64,000 nt of DNA from Dichotomocladium elegans (taxonomy: Eukaryota > Mucoromycota > Mucoromycetes > Mucorales > Lichtheimiaceae), in contig JAIXMN010000016.1 in the NCBI GenBank assembly GCA_025716815.1, positions 558,001 through 622,000 on the forward strand. The letters run 5' to 3'. The translations under genes and the position numbers were made by a program. Below are positions 42,630 through 55,153 of the stretch, one piece after another. Numbering within the stretch: position 1 is the first letter of the stretch; each line of letters begins with the position of its first letter. Below the pieces are notes generated by a model. It was not told where the DNA came from. It ran no database searches and saw nothing but the letters and a program-made list of their open reading frames with translations.

Positions 42630-43950
42630 GGCAATCTATTCTTTTTTTTTTAAAAAAAAATTGTGTGAGGTCATGTCGTTGATAAGCATGGTTATCCTGG
42701 ACCTATGAATTGTGCCGCTGACGAGGAAATGTATTCTCTTCACTCCATTTATTCCCCCACAGGATATCTGCGTAGTACATCTTGCCGGGGGGAGGGGAAC
42801 CTTGACCTTCTTGTTACGGATACGTATTACCAAGCCAAGGAGGCACATAGACATTCAGATGAAAAAAAGCAGCAGACTTTAAGCGTGGCTGTACAATGCA
42901 TACTGACAAGGATACTGCAAGATCAGCTTTTTCAGATTGATGTTTGACAAAGTCTTGAGTGCATAACTGCTGCGAAACAGCCTGGAATCCATGTTCGATC
43001 GGCACAGCGATGGGCTTCACAATATGAAAAGAACAGTGACAATGCTTTTAACACCTGTAGAGGCAAAGGTCGTTCATTTTTATTCTTAAAGAAGGATACA
43101 AAGACGTCATTTTAGACTGCGCTGTTGAGAAGCCATTGATTGTCCTAAAACAACTGATGTTGCAATCGCCCAAGACGCTTGAAGGGTCTCCAAATATCGA
43201 AAACAACACTTATCGATTTATGAAAAATGGATGTAGCCCTTGCCATAAAGAAGACTCGTTTTCGGTCTGTCGACAGGAAGAGTTATGCAAAGATCCAAAG
43301 GTGCCTTGATTGGGTGCGCGTATTGGATATGAATAATATTGACTTTAGAGAAAAAAAAAACTGATGAGCTTGGATTTCGTATTAACATGATACGCAGCAA
43401 TAGGATGGTCCAAGGAAGGGGGCTTTTGCAGTAGTTACAGTGCCAAAAAACAAGAGCAAAAACAACTACCGTCTTCGAAGCAATTTCGGCATCAGGCATC
43501 CATTAAATGGAGCTTGAGAATCCCACAACCAGCAGCTATATATAAAAAAAACGGGCCAATTTATAGCTGCAAGCAAAGGAACTGTAGCTGGTCATTATTT
43601 CAGTTTTGCTAAGACTACCATGGATGAAATGGAGAAGTATGGCCATACAAAAGGCCATTCGTTACGTAATGGATAATACACCTATTCGCAAGACCGAGGA
43701 TATCTCTAACTACGTACATCGAATCTCGGAAATATCGATGTGCCTATGTATCCTCTATCCTACTCGCCTGAACTCAATGCAACTGAACAATTTTGGTCGG
43801 TTGTGAAGAGAAAAGTAAAATGCAATAGATTTTTTTTTTTTGAAAAGCAAGACGCTGACGACCCGAATCGGTGAAACAATGAGCGGGCAATGCAAAGAGC
43901 TGAAAATTCTGTAAAGACATTGGACGGTAGCACGCTCGGTACAAGACGAT
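42630..43950 (+). pseudogene. Nearly full-length dead copy of the Tc1/mariner-like transposase
   Basis: Pieces in changing frames match the intact transposase in order. GHGRVVDENGGPEPM corresponds to a VVDKHGYPGPM-like piece. The HTH KQLGIHIRTAQRW corresponds to KQPGIHVRSAQRW near 42975-43015. DWVCKWENTDMNF corresponds to DWVRVLDMNNIDF near 43305-43345. The second catalytic Asp region (VMDNTPI, about 43665) and the third (SPELN/NEQFW-like, about 43760-43800) are also present. Many stops and frameshifts show it is old. Confidence 0.75.
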
Positions 43951-46204: not shown

Positions 46205-46224
46205 TACAGTGCTTCCAACAAGCA

Positions 46225-46337
46225 ATGTCGCAGCCAATCAAAATCGATGTCGCAGGCCAATCAAAATTAATTTCATATTTTCGGAAATAGAAATCGTTAT
46301 TTTTAGAAACCATGTCGCCTGCTTAGAAATCATGTCG
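46225..46337 (+). repeat. Subterminal ATGTCG repeats of the element
   Basis: ATGTCG occurs at 46225, 46247, 46312 and 46332. The first two head near-identical 22-23-bp tandem copies (ATGTCGCAGCCAATCAAAAT type). The same set is mirrored at the right end. Repeated subterminal motifs are typical transposase-binding sites. Confidence 0.55.
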
Positions 46338-46415
46338 TAAATCTTGGCACTGGAAAAAAAATATAAATTGAAGAGTGGTTTTTTTTTTTTCTTCATCAAT
46401 ACTTTACAATTTAAC

Positions 46416-47699
46416 ATGAGTACAATATTTTTATATGAAGATGGGCATGGAAGGGTTGTTGATGAGAATGGCGGCCCTGAGCCTATGGACTACATTGTTG
46501 ATCAGAATGAATTTATTGTTGAGACAATTGCTACACATACTGAGTACTTGAGAACTACGGCCTCCAGTGAATCATCTCTGACTTGCCCAATGTTGATAGA
46601 AAAGACAAAAGACAAAGATATTTGTATGAAGGAAGCAAACACGAAACGAGATTATGTGCGTTATACTGTTCAGGATAAAGCTAGATTTTTTGATCTGAAG
46701 ATCGAAAAGTGCATGAGTGCGTCAGCTGCAGCGAAGCAGTTGGGTATTCACATTCGAACAGCGCAGAGATGGGTTAACCAGTATAATGTGTGTCCTGATA
46801 GTATTTTTGAGAGTTGTAAAAAAGTAGGTCGTAAGTGCATCTTAACTGAAGAGCATAAAACGACTGTTATCAACTTCATTGATGCTAATCCCTCTGCTAC
46901 TGTTGTTGAAGTGACCGAGCATTTATCAACGCAATTTCATGATCTTAAAGTCTTACGCAGCACTGTCTATAACTTTATGAGAAGTGAATGTAACCTTTCG
47001 TTGAAGAAAGCAGATTTTCATTCTATTGAGAGAAACAGTTCGGCAAAGATTGAGGAACGACACGATTGGGTTTGCAAATGGGAGAATACCGACATGAATT
47101 TCCTGACAAATTGCGTGTTTCTTGACGAGTCTGCGTTTGATATTAATATGAAACGCTCACGAGCTTGGTCCAAAAAAGGTTCTCGTGCCATTGTTACCAG
47201 ACCCACTACGAGAGCAAATACAACGTCTATATTGGGCGCTATCTCCGCTTCAGGTTTGATTGCAGTTGGCGTGAAAAAACCAAGACCTGTTAAGAAGAGA
47301 AAAGCTGATGGATATATAAGCTCAGGAACTGTCACAGGCCACTACATCAGTTTCTTAAAAACGACTCTCGATGAAATGGACAAGCATTTGCATATGAAAG
47401 GCCATTATATAGTCATGGATAATGCACCCATTCACACGCACGAAAACATAAAGAAGTATATTGAATATCGAGGATACAAATGTGTGTATCTTCCTACTTA
47501 CTCTCCTGAGCTTAACCCAATAGAACAATTCTGGGCAGTGGCAAAGAGTAAGGTTAAGCGCCATAGGTTTTTGCAGGAAGACACTTTATCAAAAAGAATT
47601 ACAGAAGCCTGCAACAGCGTGGAAAAAGGTCACTTCAAAGGCTTTGTTTCGCATTCTTACAAGTGCTGGGATAAATGTCGAAACAAGGAGCCTATGTAA
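46416..47699 (+). CDS. Tc1/mariner-like DD34E transposase, left copy
   Basis: Intact 427-residue transposase that would excise and insert the element at TA. A helix-turn-helix (SASAAAKQLGIHIRTAQRW, about residues 102-120) and further DNA-binding segments precede the catalytic core. The acidic triad is clear: VFLDESAFD, VMDNAPIHT and SPELNPIEQFW, with 34 residues between the second Asp and the Glu (DD34E). The start is the first ATG after a T-rich leader; no intron is needed. The predicted protein is identical to that of the inverted copy at 52242..53525, so both are probably still functional. The stop codon overlaps the start of a small downstream ORF (TAATG). Confidence 0.93.
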   Translation: MSTIFLYEDGHGRVVDENGGPEPMDYIVDQNEFIVETIATHTEYLRTTASSESSLTCPMLIEKTKDKDICMKEANTKRDYVRYTVQDKARFFDLKIEKCMSASAAAKQLGIHIRTAQRWVNQYNVCPDSIFESCKKVGRKCILTEEHKTTVINFIDANPSATVVEVTEHLSTQFHDLKVLRSTVYNFMRSECNLSLKKADFHSIERNSSAKIEERHDWVCKWENTDMNFLTNCVFLDESAFDINMKRSRAWSKKGSRAIVTRPTTRANTTSILGAISASGLIAVGVKKPRPVKKRKADGYISSGTVTGHYISFLKTTLDEMDKHLHMKGHYIVMDNAPIHTHENIKKYIEYRGYKCVYLPTYSPELNPIEQFWAVAKSKVKRHRFLQEDTLSKRITEACNSVEKGHFKGFVSHSYKCWDKCRNKEPM

Positions 47700-47878
47700 T
47701 GGCATCGACAACCACACCAGAAGCCAATAACACAGCGATTAAGAAAAAGGTAAGCTACAATCAGATCAGCAACAAACAATTTTAACTTTATTATATATAT
47801 TTTTTTATGTAGGTCATACAACATTGGCAAGTATTTTTAAGAGCACCAAGTGTAGGACACTTGAGAAAGAAGATGTAG
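47699..47878 (+). CDS. Small spliced ORF running into the tandem array
   Basis: The ATG at 47699 overlaps the transposase TAA. Exon 47699..47749 ends at GTAAGC; an acceptor TTTATGTAG precedes exon 47813..47878. The 38-residue product would end inside the first array units as VGHLRKKM. The same module is repeated in the inverted right arm, and a further linker copy without the ATG is fused to the truncated cargo gene. Translation is unproven; it may instead be a spliced 3' untranslated region. Confidence 0.3.
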
Positions 47879-48683
47879 GACACTTCAGAAAAGATGTAGG
47901 ACACTTGAGAAAGAAGATGTAGGACACTTCAGAAAAGATGTAGGACACTTCAGAAAAGATGTAGGACACTTGAGAAAAGATGTAGGACACTTGAGAAAGA
48001 AGATATAGGACACTTGAGAAAGAAGATGTAGGACACTTCAGAAAAGATGTAGGACACTTGAGAAAGAAGATGTAGGACACTTGAGAAAGAAGATATAGGA
48101 CACTTGAGAAAGAAGATGTAGGACACTTGAGAAAGAAGATATAGGACACTTGAGAAAGAAGATGTAGGACACTTGAGAAAAGATGTAGGACACTTGAGAA
48201 AAGATGTAGGACACTTCAGAAAAGATGTAGGACACTTGAGAAAGAAGATGTAGGACACTTCAGAAAAGATGTAGGACACTTGAGAAAAGATGTAGGACAC
48301 TTGAGAAAGAAGATATAGGACACTTGAGAAAGAAGATGTAGGACACTTGAGAAAAGATGTAGGACACTTGAGAAAAGATGTAGGACACTTGAGAAAGAAG
48401 ATGTAGGACACTTCAGAAAAGATGTAGGACACTTGAGAAAGAAGATGTAGGACACTTGAGAAAGAAGATATAGGACACTTGAGAAAGAAGATGTAGGACA
48501 CTTGAGAAAAGATGTAGGACACTTGAGAAAAGATGTAGGACACTTGAGAAAGAAGATATAGGACACTTGAGAAAGAAGATGTAGGACACTTCAGAAAAGA
48601 TGTAGGACACTTGAGAAAGAAGATGTAGGACACTTGAGAAAGAAGATATAGGACACTTGAGAAAGAAGATGTAGGACACTTGA
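47851..48683 (+). repeat. Tandem array 1: about 38 copies of a 21/23-bp unit
   Basis: Consensus TGTAGGACACTTGAGAAAGAAGA (shown split: TGTAGGACAC + TTGAGAAAGAAGA, 23 bp). 21-bp variants end TTCAGAAAAGA or TTGAGAAAAGA. One 23-bp variant has ATATAGG in place of TGTAGG. Units are contiguous with no spacers. The 21-bp units encode the heptad VGHFRKD or VGHLRKD; 23-bp units shift the frame. Confidence 0.97.
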
Positions 48684-48972
48684 ACTGCGCGCAAATGATG
48701 GGAGAAATCTGGCAGTTCATGTTCATAGCATCGTGGACAGTTATTTTTTTTATACATACACGCCATGGATGATAAGTAGACATCGCTCTCATTCAAATAA
48801 CAAATGTCAGTCGCTGGACAATTGAAATTGATGTTATTGACCAGTCAAAATTAATTTTGTATTTTCTCGATTATTTTTTAGTTGCTTGGAAATAAGCAAT
48901 TCGTGTGATCTCTTATTGTTTTCTCTTTTTTTTCTTTCCTTTTTTTTCAGTTGTAATTCTCTTGCCTTGAAA

Positions 48973-50308
48973 ATGTTAACTTTAGGTCAAGCTTCCTGCC
49001 TTGTCCTTGGATACAAACCCAATGATCCAGAAGAGAGAAAAAAGTGGCTTAATTGCAGTACACATACGTAATCACGATCCTTTTCAACCGATGGCCATTG
49101 GTATCAATGTACACGAGCGAGATCCCTTCAAATTCATAAGTTATCCCGATTCTCCAACAATGCCACCTACAGATTTACCTGATAACATTGATGATCACGA
49201 TGGCAACGACAACAACGGCAATAACGACGATAGCAACAGCAGTGACAGCGACGATAGCAACAGCAGCATCTATAAAAATAATAATAGCAACAACAGTAAC
49301 AAAGACAGGTCTAAAAAACGGAAGCTTGATGACACGGTTATACCATTCTGCAAGGATCGTCTGCTGAACCTTATGAAAGAAATTGCCACCGATGAAAATC
49401 CTTTGAACGACAATTGTTATTCCAAACAATTCCTAACTGCAGAAGATCAATACCAACTAATGTGCAGTGTGTTCCCGCGTCTTAAAAATCATTGTACCGT
49501 AAATCAACTTCAATATTGGATTGGACAGGCAAAGATCTGGGGAAAATCAGGACGCTCACGAAAAAATCAGCGAAAACCTGGACGAAACTTATGGGTGGTT
49601 GATGAACAGCTAAGGGGTAAAAACACTTCACTAAATTTTGGGTTTCCATATTTTAACAATCTATTCTGTAGCGTTCGCAACGGATACTTCCGACTCGGTC
49701 AAGGCATACTGGAAATATTTACAACATGATACCAAATACATAACAATTGGATACGCACGTAAATCGCCAACTGCCGAAACAAAAGAATCACGAATACGTT
49801 TATTACAGTTAATGGTGAACAAACTATACTTCCGCGGAAAGTGCGAAGAAGTATTCGTGAGCCCAATTTGCAAAGCAGACCAACCAATATTAGAAAGAGA
49901 CTCGCCAAAGCAGGATGATTTACTGCTGCATTTAAAAGGATCCCATGGCGATATCTCAGGTACATCAAGGTTCAGTATAATAGTTATAATAACTGAAGAT
50001 TTCCTATAGATTTAGTTGCACGCGTCCATTTCAGCCAAAAACACTTCCGCCTTGTCATCATTGACTACGCCGGGCTTTCAACGTCACCAAATGATATTAG
50101 GATTTTTTGGAGTAAGTCGAAAAGAATACTGATTGCAGCAAGTTTTTTCATGCTAATTAATTTGAATACTAGACAATGCAGCAATATCAAAGAAGTTGTT
50201 GTAGACCATGGCTCTTCGTTTGAGATCTTATCACGTTTTGATCTTTTGAAAAATATGAAGCTGGAAAAATTTAAATGTCGACATGCCAACGTTAAACGAT
50301 CAAAGTAA
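48973..50308 (+). pseudogene. Cargo gene with serine-recombinase-like domain, frameshifted by a 23-bp deletion
   Basis: Exons 48973..49616, 49672..49959 and 50010..50308. With 23 nt present in the inverted copy (lost here at about 49034) the sum is 1254 nt, an open 417-codon gene; without them the frame breaks early. The N-terminal ~90 residues precede an Asp/Asn/Ser-rich linker and a KDRSKKRKLDD nuclear-localisation-like patch. A DNA-binding-like region ends GRNLWVVDEQL. Then TIGYARKSP (Ser codon 49764-49766) starts a domain with ESRIRLLQLM and LVIIDYAGLST segments, resembling the catalytic-Ser YxRxS motif of resolvase/IS607-type recombinases. Family call is inference from short motifs; the protein otherwise is unknown to me. 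Confidence 0.6.
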
Positions 50309-50481
50309 TTTTTTTTCGTGCTAATGGTTTGTCTAATAAAAAACGAAAAAGAAGTTGTTTATTGCAAGTTTATTTTCCCTTTTTTTTTTTAAAAAAAAAA
50401 TAAAGTGCTTACACCGCAGTAATCCAATTTGATATTGTAATGACATGTTGATCTTTGGGAAATTTGAAAAGAATACAATTA

Positions 50482-50531
50482 GGTCGCTCTCATTGAAAAG
50501 ATGACGTATGTTATTTTGAATGAGAGCGACC
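50482..50531. repeat. Perfect 13-bp inverted repeat in the element centre
   Basis: GGTCGCTCTCATT (50482-50494) and its exact complement (50519-50531) flank a 24-bp loop. The core CGCTCTCATT also occurs at 48784-48793 and, inverted, at 51701-51710. It bounds the cargo-gene segment, so it may be the terminal repeat of a nested element or a rearrangement junction. Confidence 0.75.
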
Positions 50532-50647
50532 ATTTTTCGATGCAATGGCTACTTATCATCCATGGCGTGTATGTATAAAAAAAAATAACTGTCCACGATG
50601 CTATGAACATGAACTGCCAGATTTCTCCCATCATTTGCGCGCAGTTG

Positions 50648-50927
50648 AAGTGTCCTACATCTTTTCTGAAGTGTCCTACATCTTTTCTCAAGTGTCCTAC
50701 ATCTTTTCTGAAGTGTCCTACATCTTCTTTCTCAAGTGTCCTATATCTTCTTTCTCAAGTGTCCTACATCTTCTTTCTCAAGTGTCCTACATCTTCTTTC
50801 TCAAGTGTCCTACATCTTTTCTGAAGTGTCCTACATCTTCTTTCTCAAGTGTCCTACATCTTCTTTCTCAAGTGTCCTACATCTTTTCTGAAGTGTCCTA
50901 CATCTTCTTTCTCAAGTGTCCTACACT
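50648..50927 (-). repeat. Tandem array 2: 13 copies, inverted
   Basis: Same unit as array 1 in reverse orientation. Its order of unit variants differs from arrays 1 and 3 after the first three intervals, so it diverged earlier. Confidence 0.95.
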
Positions 50928-50990
50928 TGGTGCTCTTAAAAATACTTGCCAATGTTGTATGACCTACATAAAAAAATATATATAATAAAG

Positions 50991-51521
50991 TTAAAATTGT
51001 TTGTTGCTGATCTGATTGTAGCTTACCTTTTCCTTAATCGCTGTGTTATTGGCACAATTGTCGTTCAAAGGATTTTCATCGGTGGCAATTTCTTTCATAA
51101 GGTTCAGCAGACGATCCTTGCAGAATGGTATAACCGTGTCATCAAGCTTCCGTTTTTTAGACCTGTCTTTGTTACTGTTGTTGCTATTATTATTTTTATA
51201 GATGCTGCTGTTGCTATCGTCGCTGTCACTGCTGTTGCTATCGTCGTTATTGCCGTTGTTGTCGTTGCCATCGTGATCATCAATGTTATCAGGTAAATCT
51301 GTAGGTGGCATTGTTGGAGAATCGGGATAACTTATGAATTTGAAGGGATCTCGCTCGTGTACATTGATACCAATGGCCATCGGTTGAAAAGGATCGTGAT
51401 TACGTATGTGTACTGCAATTAAGCCACTTTTTTCTAGATGTTCTTTTGCCTTTTTTCTCTCTTCTGGATCATTGGGTTTGTATCCAAGGACAAGGCAGGA
51501 AGCTTGACCTAAAGTTAACAT
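50991..51521 (-). pseudogene. Truncated inverted copy of the cargo gene, fused to the linker
   Basis: 176 codons from the ATG at 51521. It matches the first part of the gene at 48973 but retains the 23 bp (with KAKEHLEKS) deleted there. After GACAATTGT (51054) the cargo sequence stops and the array linker begins, adding a foreign tail ending ISNKQF. The serine-recombinase-like domain is missing, so it cannot be a complete protein. Confidence 0.7.
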
Positions 51522-51811
51522 TTTCAAGGCAAGAGAATTACAACTGAAAAAAAAGGAAAGAAAAAAAAGAGAAAACAATAAGAGATCACACGAATTGCTT
51601 ATTTCCAAGCAACTAAAAAATAATCGAGAAAATACAAAATTAATTTTGACTGGTCAATAACATCAATTTCAATTGTCCAGCGACTGACATTTGTTATTTG
51701 AATGAGAGCGATGTCTACTTATCATCCATGGCGTGTATGTATAAAAAAAATAACTGTCCACGATGCTATGAACATGAACTGCCAGATTTCTCCCATCATT
51801 TGCGCGCAGTT

Positions 51812-52090
51812 CAAGTGTCCTACATCTTCTTTCTCAAGTGTCCTATATCTTCTTTCTCAAGTGTCCTACATCTTCTTTCTCAAGTGTCCTACATCTTTTC
51901 TGAAGTGTCCTACATCTTCTTTCTCAAGTGTCCTATATCTTCTTTCTCAAGTGTCCTACATCTTTTCTCAAGTGTCCTACATCTTTTCTGAAGTGTCCTA
52001 CATCTTTTCTGAAGTGTCCTACATCTTCTTTCTCAAGTGTCCTACATCTTTTCTGAAGTGTCCTACATCTTCTTTCTCAAGTGTCCTACA
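51812..52090 (-). repeat. Tandem array 3: 13 copies, inverted
   Basis: Read from its linker end, the twelve successive unit variants are the same as the first twelve of array 1. It is therefore array 1 minus about 25 units, a contraction after the arms were duplicated. Confidence 0.95.
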
Positions 52091-52241
52091 CTTGGTGCTC
52101 TTAAAAATACTTGCCAATGTTGTATGACCTACATAAAAAAATATATATAATAAAGTTAAAATTGTTTGTTGCTGATCTGATTGTAGCTTACCTTTTTCTT
52201 AATCGCTGTGTTATTGGCTTCTGGTGTGGTTGTCGATGCCA

Positions 52242-53525
52242 TTACATAGGCTCCTTGTTTCGACATTTATCCCAGCACTTGTAAGAATGCGAAACAAAGC
52301 CTTTGAAGTGACCTTTTTCCACGCTGTTGCAGGCTTCTGTAATTCTTTTTGATAAAGTGTCTTCCTGCAAAAACCTATGGCGCTTAACCTTACTCTTTGC
52401 CACTGCCCAGAATTGTTCTATTGGGTTAAGCTCAGGAGAGTAAGTAGGAAGATACACACATTTGTATCCTCGATATTCAATATACTTCTTTATGTTTTCG
52501 TGCGTGTGAATGGGTGCATTATCCATGACTATATAATGGCCTTTCATATGCAAATGCTTGTCCATTTCATCGAGAGTCGTTTTTAAGAAACTGATGTAGT
52601 GGCCTGTGACAGTTCCTGAGCTTATATATCCATCAGCTTTTCTCTTCTTAACAGGTCTTGGTTTTTTCACGCCAACTGCAATCAAACCTGAAGCGGAGAT
52701 AGCGCCCAATATAGACGTTGTATTTGCTCTCGTAGTGGGTCTGGTAACAATGGCACGAGAACCTTTTTTGGACCAAGCTCGTGAGCGTTTCATATTAATA
52801 TCAAACGCAGACTCGTCAAGAAACACGCAATTTGTCAGGAAATTCATGTCGGTATTCTCCCATTTGCAAACCCAATCGTGTCGTTCCTCAATCTTTGCCG
52901 AACTGTTTCTCTCAATAGAATGAAAATCTGCTTTCTTCAACGAAAGGTTACATTCACTTCTCATAAAGTTATAGACAGTGCTGCGTAAGACTTTAAGATC
53001 ATGAAATTGCGTTGATAAATGCTCGGTCACTTCAACAACAGTAGCAGAGGGATTAGCATCAATGAAGTTGATAACAGTCGTTTTATGCTCTTCAGTTAAG
53101 ATGCACTTACGACCTACTTTTTTACAACTCTCAAAAATACTATCAGGACACACATTATACTGGTTAACCCATCTCTGCGCTGTTCGAATGTGAATACCCA
53201 ACTGCTTCGCTGCAGCTGACGCACTCATGCACTTTTCGATCTTCAGATCAAAAAATCTAGCTTTATCCTGAACAGTATAACGCACATAATCTCGTTTCGT
53301 GTTTGCTTCCTTCATACAAATATCTTTGTCTTTTGTCTTTTCTATCAACATTGGGCAAGTCAGAGATGATTCACTGGAGGCCGTAGTTCTCAAGTACTCA
53401 GTATGTGTAGCAATTGTCTCAACAATAAATTCATTCTGATCAACAATGTAGTCCATAGGCTCAGGGCCGCCATTCTCATCAACAACCCTTCCATGCCCAT
53501 CTTCATATAAAAATATTGTACTCAT
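52242..53525 (-). CDS. Tc1/mariner-like DD34E transposase, right inverted copy
   Basis: 427 residues, same predicted protein as 46416..47699 including the HTH and the DD34E triad. Distance from the outer end to the start of the array is 1,644 bp in both arms. One mismatch (G/A) is visible in the terminal 140 bp. It ends a short distance from the DAHP synthase gene. Confidence 0.93.
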   Translation of the reverse strand: MSTIFLYEDGHGRVVDENGGPEPMDYIVDQNEFIVETIATHTEYLRTTASSESSLTCPMLIEKTKDKDICMKEANTKRDYVRYTVQDKARFFDLKIEKCMSASAAAKQLGIHIRTAQRWVNQYNVCPDSIFESCKKVGRKCILTEEHKTTVINFIDANPSATVVEVTEHLSTQFHDLKVLRSTVYNFMRSECNLSLKKADFHSIERNSSAKIEERHDWVCKWENTDMNFLTNCVFLDESAFDINMKRSRAWSKKGSRAIVTRPTTRANTTSILGAISASGLIAVGVKKPRPVKKRKADGYISSGTVTGHYISFLKTTLDEMDKHLHMKGHYIVMDNAPIHTHENIKKYIEYRGYKCVYLPTYSPELNPIEQFWAVAKSKVKRHRFLQEDTLSKRITEACNSVEKGHFKGFVSHSYKCWDKCRNKEPM

Positions 53526-53844
53526 GTTAAATTGTAAAGTATTGATGAAGAAAAAAAAAAAACCACTCTTCAATTTATATTTTTTTTCCAGTGCCAAGAT
53601 TTACGACATGATTTCTAAGCAGGCGACATGGTTTCTAAAAATAACGATTTCTATTTCCGAAAATATGAAATTAATTTTGATTGGCTTGCGACATCGATTT
53701 TGATTGGCTGCGACATTGCTTGTTGGAAGCACTGTACATTTTTCTGGCTTGGTCGAGTTCTTTTTATAGATGGATACACACACACACACATGCGCGAGCG
53801 CGCGAGAGATAGAGGGGGGAGAGAGAGGAAAAGAGAAAAAGGGA

Positions 53845-55153
<1,309 letters not shown>

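What the first reader, a model, noticed from the sequence alone, without database searches (positions are those of the whole stretch)
46207..53734. A 7.5-kb composite Tc1/mariner-like element with two inverted, identical transposase genes as its arms
The whole structure is bordered by TA and by one pair of CAGTGCTTCC ends; no such ends occur inside it. Both transposases are intact (DD34E) with identical predicted proteins. This is not a simple Tc1 element (normally one gene, 1.3-2.5 kb), nor two separate insertions, because inner ends are absent. It looks like a Tc1-type element that grew by inverted duplication and could move as one unit with cargo. The arms match to the base in length up to the array (1,644 bp each), so the event is recent.
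Basis: partly seen in the sequence, partly recalled or inferred. Interest (0 to 1): 0.88.

Follow-up and report, generated by a model that had tools for sequence, protein, structure and literature searches.

The report
Two-armed fungal transposon with recombinase-like gene
A 7.5-kb fungal jumping gene carries a full copy of its own mover enzyme in each of two mirror-image arms, and between them a gene for a protein shaped like a second, quite different kind of DNA-recombining enzyme; related two-armed copies elsewhere in the genome suggest this is a design and not an accident.

Summary
Window 46205-53736 has one pair of TA-CAGTGCTTCC ends; its inverted arms differ at 1 of 1926 bases and each encodes an intact DD34E transposase. 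The reading changes in three ways. (1) Not a one-off: the genome holds other inverted transposase pairs. In 8 pairs aligned over the transposase gene, arms agree at 97-100%, against at most 88% between pairs; two older pairs have drifted to 83-90%. Three relatives (L009, L024, L025) share the order transposase - tandem array - central gene - inverted array or transposase, so arm identity need not mean a recent event. (2) The 'cargo' is a conserved second gene of Mucorales and Umbelopsis; 12 of 19 places in this genome lie near this transposase. (3) Two AlphaFold models of its protein show a serine-recombinase fold behind a possible winged helix, the domain order of IS607 TnpA; catalytic Ser and Arg8 are kept, Arg68/Arg71 seem lost. 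Best reading: a foldback-like Tc1/mariner family with a serine-recombinase-like accessory protein, perhaps an arm-pairing factor. In this copy the second gene is broken. Mobility, pairing and homogenisation are inferred.

The parts
46205..46220 (+). left outer end: TA target site + CAGTGCTTCCAACA...
53721..53736 (-). right outer end, same sequence inverted, bordered by TA
46205..48130 (+). left arm (1926 nt, 1 mismatch to right arm)
51811..53736 (-). right arm
46416..47699 (+). left transposase gene, 427 aa from ATG, DDE_3 + HTH; DD34E by eye
52242..53525 (-). right transposase gene, identical protein
47851..48683 (+). left tandem array, 23/21-bp units, about 37 copies
51811..52090 (-). right tandem array, inverted, about 12.6 copies
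50648..50925 (-). third array, part of a 1165-bp tandem duplication in the right half
48973..50308 (+). central second gene, several exons (exon limits approximate); serine-recombinase-like protein with a possible winged helix; this copy is broken by a frameshift after about 24 codons
51054..51521 (-). 3'-truncated inverted copy of the second gene (5' half only)

Best explanation
This is one copy of a foldback-like family of Tc1/mariner-type (DD34E) DNA transposons of Mucorales-type fungi. SHOWN: one outer pair of ends; a transposase gene inside each long inverted arm; a tandem array at the inner end of each arm; a conserved central gene whose predicted protein has a serine-recombinase fold; a like plan in three diverged relatives (L009, L024, L025), with three array units among the window and these relatives. 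INFERRED: the transposase cuts at the outer ends only, so the whole unit moves; while an element is young or active its arms are kept alike by gene conversion or pairing; the second protein is a DNA-binding, arm-pairing (synapsis) factor acting on the arrays, much as IS607 TnpA coats subterminal repeats. Because two catalytic arginines of serine recombinases appear to be lost, strand exchange by it is doubtful. In this copy the second gene is broken, so any present movement would rely on the transposase alone or on second protein from elsewhere.
Against: Most transposase loci are single: 87 of 97 are not in a facing pair under 5 kb. Not every inverted pair is near-identical: L014 arms agree at 85% and L027 at 83-90%, L011 at 93%, and the C43b pair at 92.5% when non-coding parts and gaps are counted, so homogenisation, if real, does not last in decayed copies. 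The inner limit of the arms differs between the window and L009, as independent duplications would also give. Foldseek E-values for the fold are weak (top row a non-recombinase at 1.6e-2, recombinases from 1.7e-2; 2.5e-3); no Pfam or PDB sequence match; profile comparison with gamma-delta resolvase gave probability 13.7. Arrays right behind the transposase were found in 7 of 20 fetched loci that keep its 3' end (8 with a weak 2.1-copy repeat in L036). Of 19 second-gene places, 7 have no transposase hit within 6 kb. No empty site, no second copy of the window's centre, no activity data. A simple one-gene 1.7-kb relative, Tc1-MP1, is in print (PMC9977792).
Confidence: 0.6

Rival explanations
1. 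One reading: a one-armed element (end - transposase - array - second gene - end) recently formed an inverted duplication here; the other pairs formed independently by the same accident.
For: Arms here differ at 1 of 1926 bases. Inner limits of the inverted arms differ between the window (into the second gene) and L009 (ending in the array). Each of the 8 pairs is its own clade. The one-armed Tc1-MP1 is published (PMC9977792, section 5 read).
Against: Arrays inverted on both sides of the central gene occur with three different units (window, L009, L025), and pairs with arms drifted to 83-90% (L014, L027) show that two-armed copies can be old; repeated independent origin is less economical.
Confidence: 0.27
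2. Two neighbouring ordinary elements in opposite orientation whose inner ends were deleted, now a macrotransposon-like or bacterial-composite-like unit.
For: Two complete transposase genes face each other; the right half contains a tandem-duplicated piece, so rearrangement occurred.
Against: No inner ends found with up to 2 mismatches; near-identity of arms; a like arrangement recurs with the central gene.
Confidence: 0.09
3. Assembly artefact (a fold-back or chimeric read duplicated the arm).
For: Arms are almost identical and no reads could be examined.
Against: The two halves differ in array length, in a 23-bp indel and in a 1165-bp duplication; L009, with the same plan, carries 12 private substitutions between its arms.
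Confidence: 0.03

Closest known systems
Tc1-MP1 (Mucor piriformis; Rhizopodaceae and Mucoraceae), PMC9977792: abstract, passages and section 5 read
   Same: DD34E Tc1-type transposase of similar length (434 aa) in Mucorales; homologues in genera that the search also lists
   Different: Tc1-MP1 is 1,688 bp with 141-bp inverted ends and one gene; here two transposase genes in 1.9-kb arms, arrays and a second gene. Membership in its clade was not tested
Tc1-OP1 (Ogataea), same paper
   Same: enlarged Tc1-type element, called in 2023 the largest of the superfamily at 5,659 bp
   Different: one fused ORF, 169-bp inverted ends; the window element is 7.53 kb and two-armed
Galileo / Foldback-like elements (PMC3688188 and Tm1 PMC3169594, abstract and passages read)
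   Same: long inverted arms holding tandem repeats; in Galileo these repeats hold transposase binding sites
   Different: P- or Mutator-type transposase; the passages read mention no transposase gene within each arm and no serine-recombinase-like gene
IS607-family TnpA (PMC6188088, abstract and passages read)
   Same: serine-recombinase fold with the DNA-binding domain on the N-terminal side; TnpA binds multiple subterminal repeats
   Different: there it is the transposase of an element without terminal inverted repeats; here it accompanies a DDE transposase and seems to lack two catalytic arginines
Mariner elements with extra proteins (Fanzor1, endonuclease, methyltransferase; PMC3627910, abstract and passages read)
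   Same: precedent for accessory proteins in Mariner-type elements
   Different: different accessory proteins; no two-armed plan in the passages read
Bacterial composite transposons such as Tn10 and Tn5 (recalled)
   Same: two inverted transposase-bearing arms around other genes
   Different: there each arm is an insertion sequence with its own inner end; none found here

Membership tests
IS630/Tc1/mariner superfamily | DDE transposase with DD34E/D and HTH DNA-binding region | tested here: met
   PF13358 DDE_3 E 6.7e-30, PF13384 HTH_23 E 2.2e-05; 34 residues between second D and E counted by eye
IS630/Tc1/mariner superfamily | TA target duplication at both ends | tested here: inconclusive
   TA present at both ends, but no empty site was available
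IS630/Tc1/mariner superfamily | single gene, about 1.3-2.5 kb (usual form, not obligatory) | tested here: not met
   7.53 kb, two transposase genes and a second gene
Tc1-MP1 clade | transposase falls inside the published clade II | not tested
   the paper's sequences were not compared; homologues are from the same genera
Foldback-like elements | long inverted arms with internal tandem repeats | tested here: met
Galileo / Mutator foldback elements | P- or MULE-type transposase | tested here: not met
   DDE_3 Tc1-type; no other transposase family at E 0.001
Bacterial-type composite transposon | each arm a complete insertion sequence with its own inner end | tested here: not met
   no inner ends with up to 2 mismatches
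Serine recombinase superfamily (second protein) | catalytic-domain fold | tested here: met
Serine recombinase superfamily (second protein) | nucleophile Ser10 and Arg8 | tested here: met
   R268 and S270 invariant in the 23-row alignment; R209 and S211 at 90% or more in the 41-row alignment; aligned ranges put S270/S211 on residue 10 of gamma-delta resolvase if the first ten residues are ungapped
Serine recombinase superfamily (second protein) | Arg68 and Arg71 of the DRLGR motif | tested here: inconclusive
   mostly DYAGLST, with variants, at what looks like that place; aligned by eye, no superposition available; it points to loss
IS607 family (second protein) | DNA-binding domain N-terminal to the catalytic domain | tested here: inconclusive
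IS607 family (whole element) | no terminal inverted repeats, no target duplication | tested here: not met
   clear inverted ends bordered by TA
Serine recombinase superfamily (second protein) | strand-exchange activity | not testable with these tools
   needs biochemistry

The most novel reading that the evidence does not exclude
A eukaryotic transposon system in which a DDE transposase does the cutting while an element-encoded, perhaps catalytically altered serine-recombinase relative binds fast-evolving tandem arrays in two inverted arms, pairs the arms and thereby keeps both transposase copies identical; a DDE transposase and a serine-recombinase-fold protein working as partners in one eukaryotic element.
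Probability: 0.25. Interest if true: 0.85.

Novelty: new variant of a known kind. Interest (0 to 1): 0.66.

Why it matters
It would widen what a Tc1/mariner element can be: two transposase copies inside long arms, tandem arrays and a conserved accessory gene with a serine-recombinase fold, in a group usually described as one-gene elements. It gives a testable case for how long inverted arms stay alike, why foldback-like elements keep arrays in their arms, and whether a recombinase fold has been re-used as a pairing factor. It also groups some tens of uncharacterised Mucorales proteins into one family with a likely fold and context.

Full report
WHAT IS THERE. The window is bases 558001-622000 of contig C31 of an unnamed 39.4-Mb, 122-contig genome. 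Between TA dinucleotides, from 46205 to 53736, lies a 7.5-kb structure with one pair of CAGTGCTTCC ends. The arms 46205-48130 and 51811-53736 are inverted copies with one mismatch in 1926 bases; two further blocks continue the inverted match towards the centre with 1 mismatch in 557 and none in 382. With up to two mismatches the 18-base end occurs in this contig only at the two outer borders. Each arm encodes the same 427-residue transposase with DDE_3 and HTH domains; counting residues by eye gives DD34E.

FINER ANATOMY. Behind each transposase gene is an array of 23/21-bp units: 833 bp on the left (47851-48683), 280 bp on the right (51811-52090), and a third array of 278 bp (50648-50925) that belongs to a 1165-bp tandem duplication in the right half. 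The centre holds a second gene in several exons (about 48973-50308, +), and the right half carries an inverted copy of its 5' half (51054-51521, -). The two copies differ by a 23-bp indel; the left, otherwise complete copy is frameshifted after about 24 codons and the right copy lacks its 3' half. So in this element both transposases are intact but the second gene is not.

NOT A ONE-OFF. A protein search of the genome gave 119 transposase hits (a lower bound: 98 of 2573 candidates were scored), merged into 97 loci. Five facing (+ then -) pairs lie within 5 kb against about 0.3 expected at random, and 7 within 20 kb; 3 pairs within 20 kb have the opposite (- then +) arrangement. I held DNA of 8 of these 10 opposite-strand pairs (the 7 facing ones and C53). 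Over the transposase gene, gaps left out, their arms agree at 97.1, 98.6, 99.1, 99.1, 99.5, 99.6, 100 and 100%, while the best match of any arm to another pair is 84.3-88.2%; every pair is a clade of its own, in several lineages. Three kinds of result cut the other way. Most loci (87 of 97) are not in facing pairs under 5 kb. With non-coding parts counted, the C43b pair falls to 92.5%. And inverted pairs too broken to be in that list have drifted arms: L014 85%, L027 83-90%, L011 93%, L018 85-95%. So two-armed copies can be old, and any homogenisation does not last in decayed copies.

A LIKE PLAN IN OTHER COPIES. The C68 copy (L009, 5.45 kb) has its own TA-CAGTGCTTCC ends, both transposase arms, a 30-bp array at the inner end of each arm and a relative of the central gene in the middle. 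Its arms share 247 substitutions and a 1-nt deletion that shifts the frame, relative to the window, with only 5 and 7 private substitutions and a few private indels: a disabling change is present in both arms, as copying between arms, or duplication after decay, would give. L025 has the end of a transposase gene, an array of about 44 units of 32 bp, the central gene, then the same array inverted; no right-hand transposase was found there. L024, with a similar unit, has a transposase remnant and array, a central-gene remnant and an inverted transposase remnant. L026 has the array only beyond the gene, and L016 has an array of 34-bp units between transposase and second-gene pieces, and matching ends. 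In the 15 window-lineage loci I looked at (window, L009 and the 13), 7 show arms in both orientations: window, L009, L011, L014, L018, L024, L027. A tandem array directly behind the transposase was found in 7 of 20 fetched loci that keep its 3' end (L009, L010, L016, L024, L025, L035, window), or 8 with a weak 2.1-copy repeat in L036. Units differ between most of these copies (L024, L025 and L026 share one) but agree between the two sides in the 4 copies that have arrays on both (window, L009, L025, L035). That is the pattern of concerted evolution of two arms, though repeated independent duplication is not excluded; the inner limits of the arms do differ between the window and L009.

THE SECOND GENE. 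Its protein had 34 homologues in the first search and 60, in part the same, in a profile search. The named ones belong to Mucorales genera or Umbelopsis (orders recalled), among them a 413-residue protein of Gilbertella persicaria 90% identical over the whole query. A transposase homologue of the same species (P0067) lies on a contig of the same length, 89,436 bp, and in Rhizopus arrhizus the two proteins bear consecutive tags, G6F29_011779 and G6F29_011780; gene neighbourhoods could not be viewed. Three protein queries found 19 places in the window's genome (the L009 gene is not among them). Of these, 12, two of them in the window itself, lie within 6 kb of a transposase hit, against about 4% expected; 7 do not. 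In the C57 pair each inverted arm holds both genes, in convergent orientation.

HOW IT MAY WORK. Shown: anatomy, recurrence, linkage, predicted fold. Inferred: the transposase acts at the outer ends only, so the unit moves whole; pairing of the arms, or gene conversion, keeps them alike; the second protein binds the arrays. Precedents from reading: IS607 TnpA dimers associate with multiple subterminal repeats and capture the second end (PMC6188088, abstract and passages); Galileo's long arms hold transposase binding sites in their tandem repeats (PMC3688188, abstract and passages); Mariner elements with other accessory proteins are known (PMC3627910, passages). The broken second gene here means that this copy either manages without it or uses protein from elsewhere.

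AGAINST WHAT IS KNOWN. The transposase is of the Tc1-type DD34E kind; in Mucorales, Tc1-MP1 (1,688 bp, one gene, 141-bp inverted ends) is the published example, and the same 2023 paper calls the 5,659-bp Tc1-OP1 the largest of its superfamily to date (PMC9977792, abstract, passages and section 5). Whether this transposase falls in the Tc1-MP1 clade was not tested. The two-armed plan resembles foldback elements and bacterial composite transposons, but differs in superfamily, in lacking inner ends and in the second gene. I rate it a new variant of a known kind. The literature searches cover an open-access library only.

Noticed in passing
window 42669-43835: A second, diverged Tc1/mariner-type transposase stretch (28-33% identical), outside the element.
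   Followed up: partly
window 20952: A lone exact CAGTGCTTCC in + orientation, far from the element; not among the 2-mismatch matches of the longer end pattern.
   Followed up: no
window 53845-54543: DAHP synthase gene (PF00793) whose stop codon lies about 110 bp from the right end of the element.
   Followed up: no
L011 3675-5404 (C101): A 1.73-kb palindrome (arms 93% alike) with the same kind of ends, two truncated transposase arms and no centre: a miniature derivative of the family.
   Followed up: partly
L023 1580-5103 (C2): A 3.5-kb element with both ends of this subfamily but only a short left arm and a partial right arm.
   Followed up: partly
G000 C57:1596996-1615653 (L039, L040): An 18-kb structure with inverted arms 98.9% identical over the 2.3 kb held, each holding a transposase and a second gene in convergent orientation; its centre could not be fetched.
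   Followed up: partly
L041 (C53): A pair of 99.2% identical inverted transposase copies in the opposite arrangement, N-termini facing inward.
   Followed up: no
P0152: A protein named cytochrome P450 of Mucor mucedo contains a short stretch identical to the second protein over 10% of the query, probably a gene-model fusion.
   Followed up: no
window 50483-50532: A short hairpin (GGTCGCTCTCATT...AATGAGAGCGACC) at the junction between the end of the second gene and the right half.
   Followed up: no
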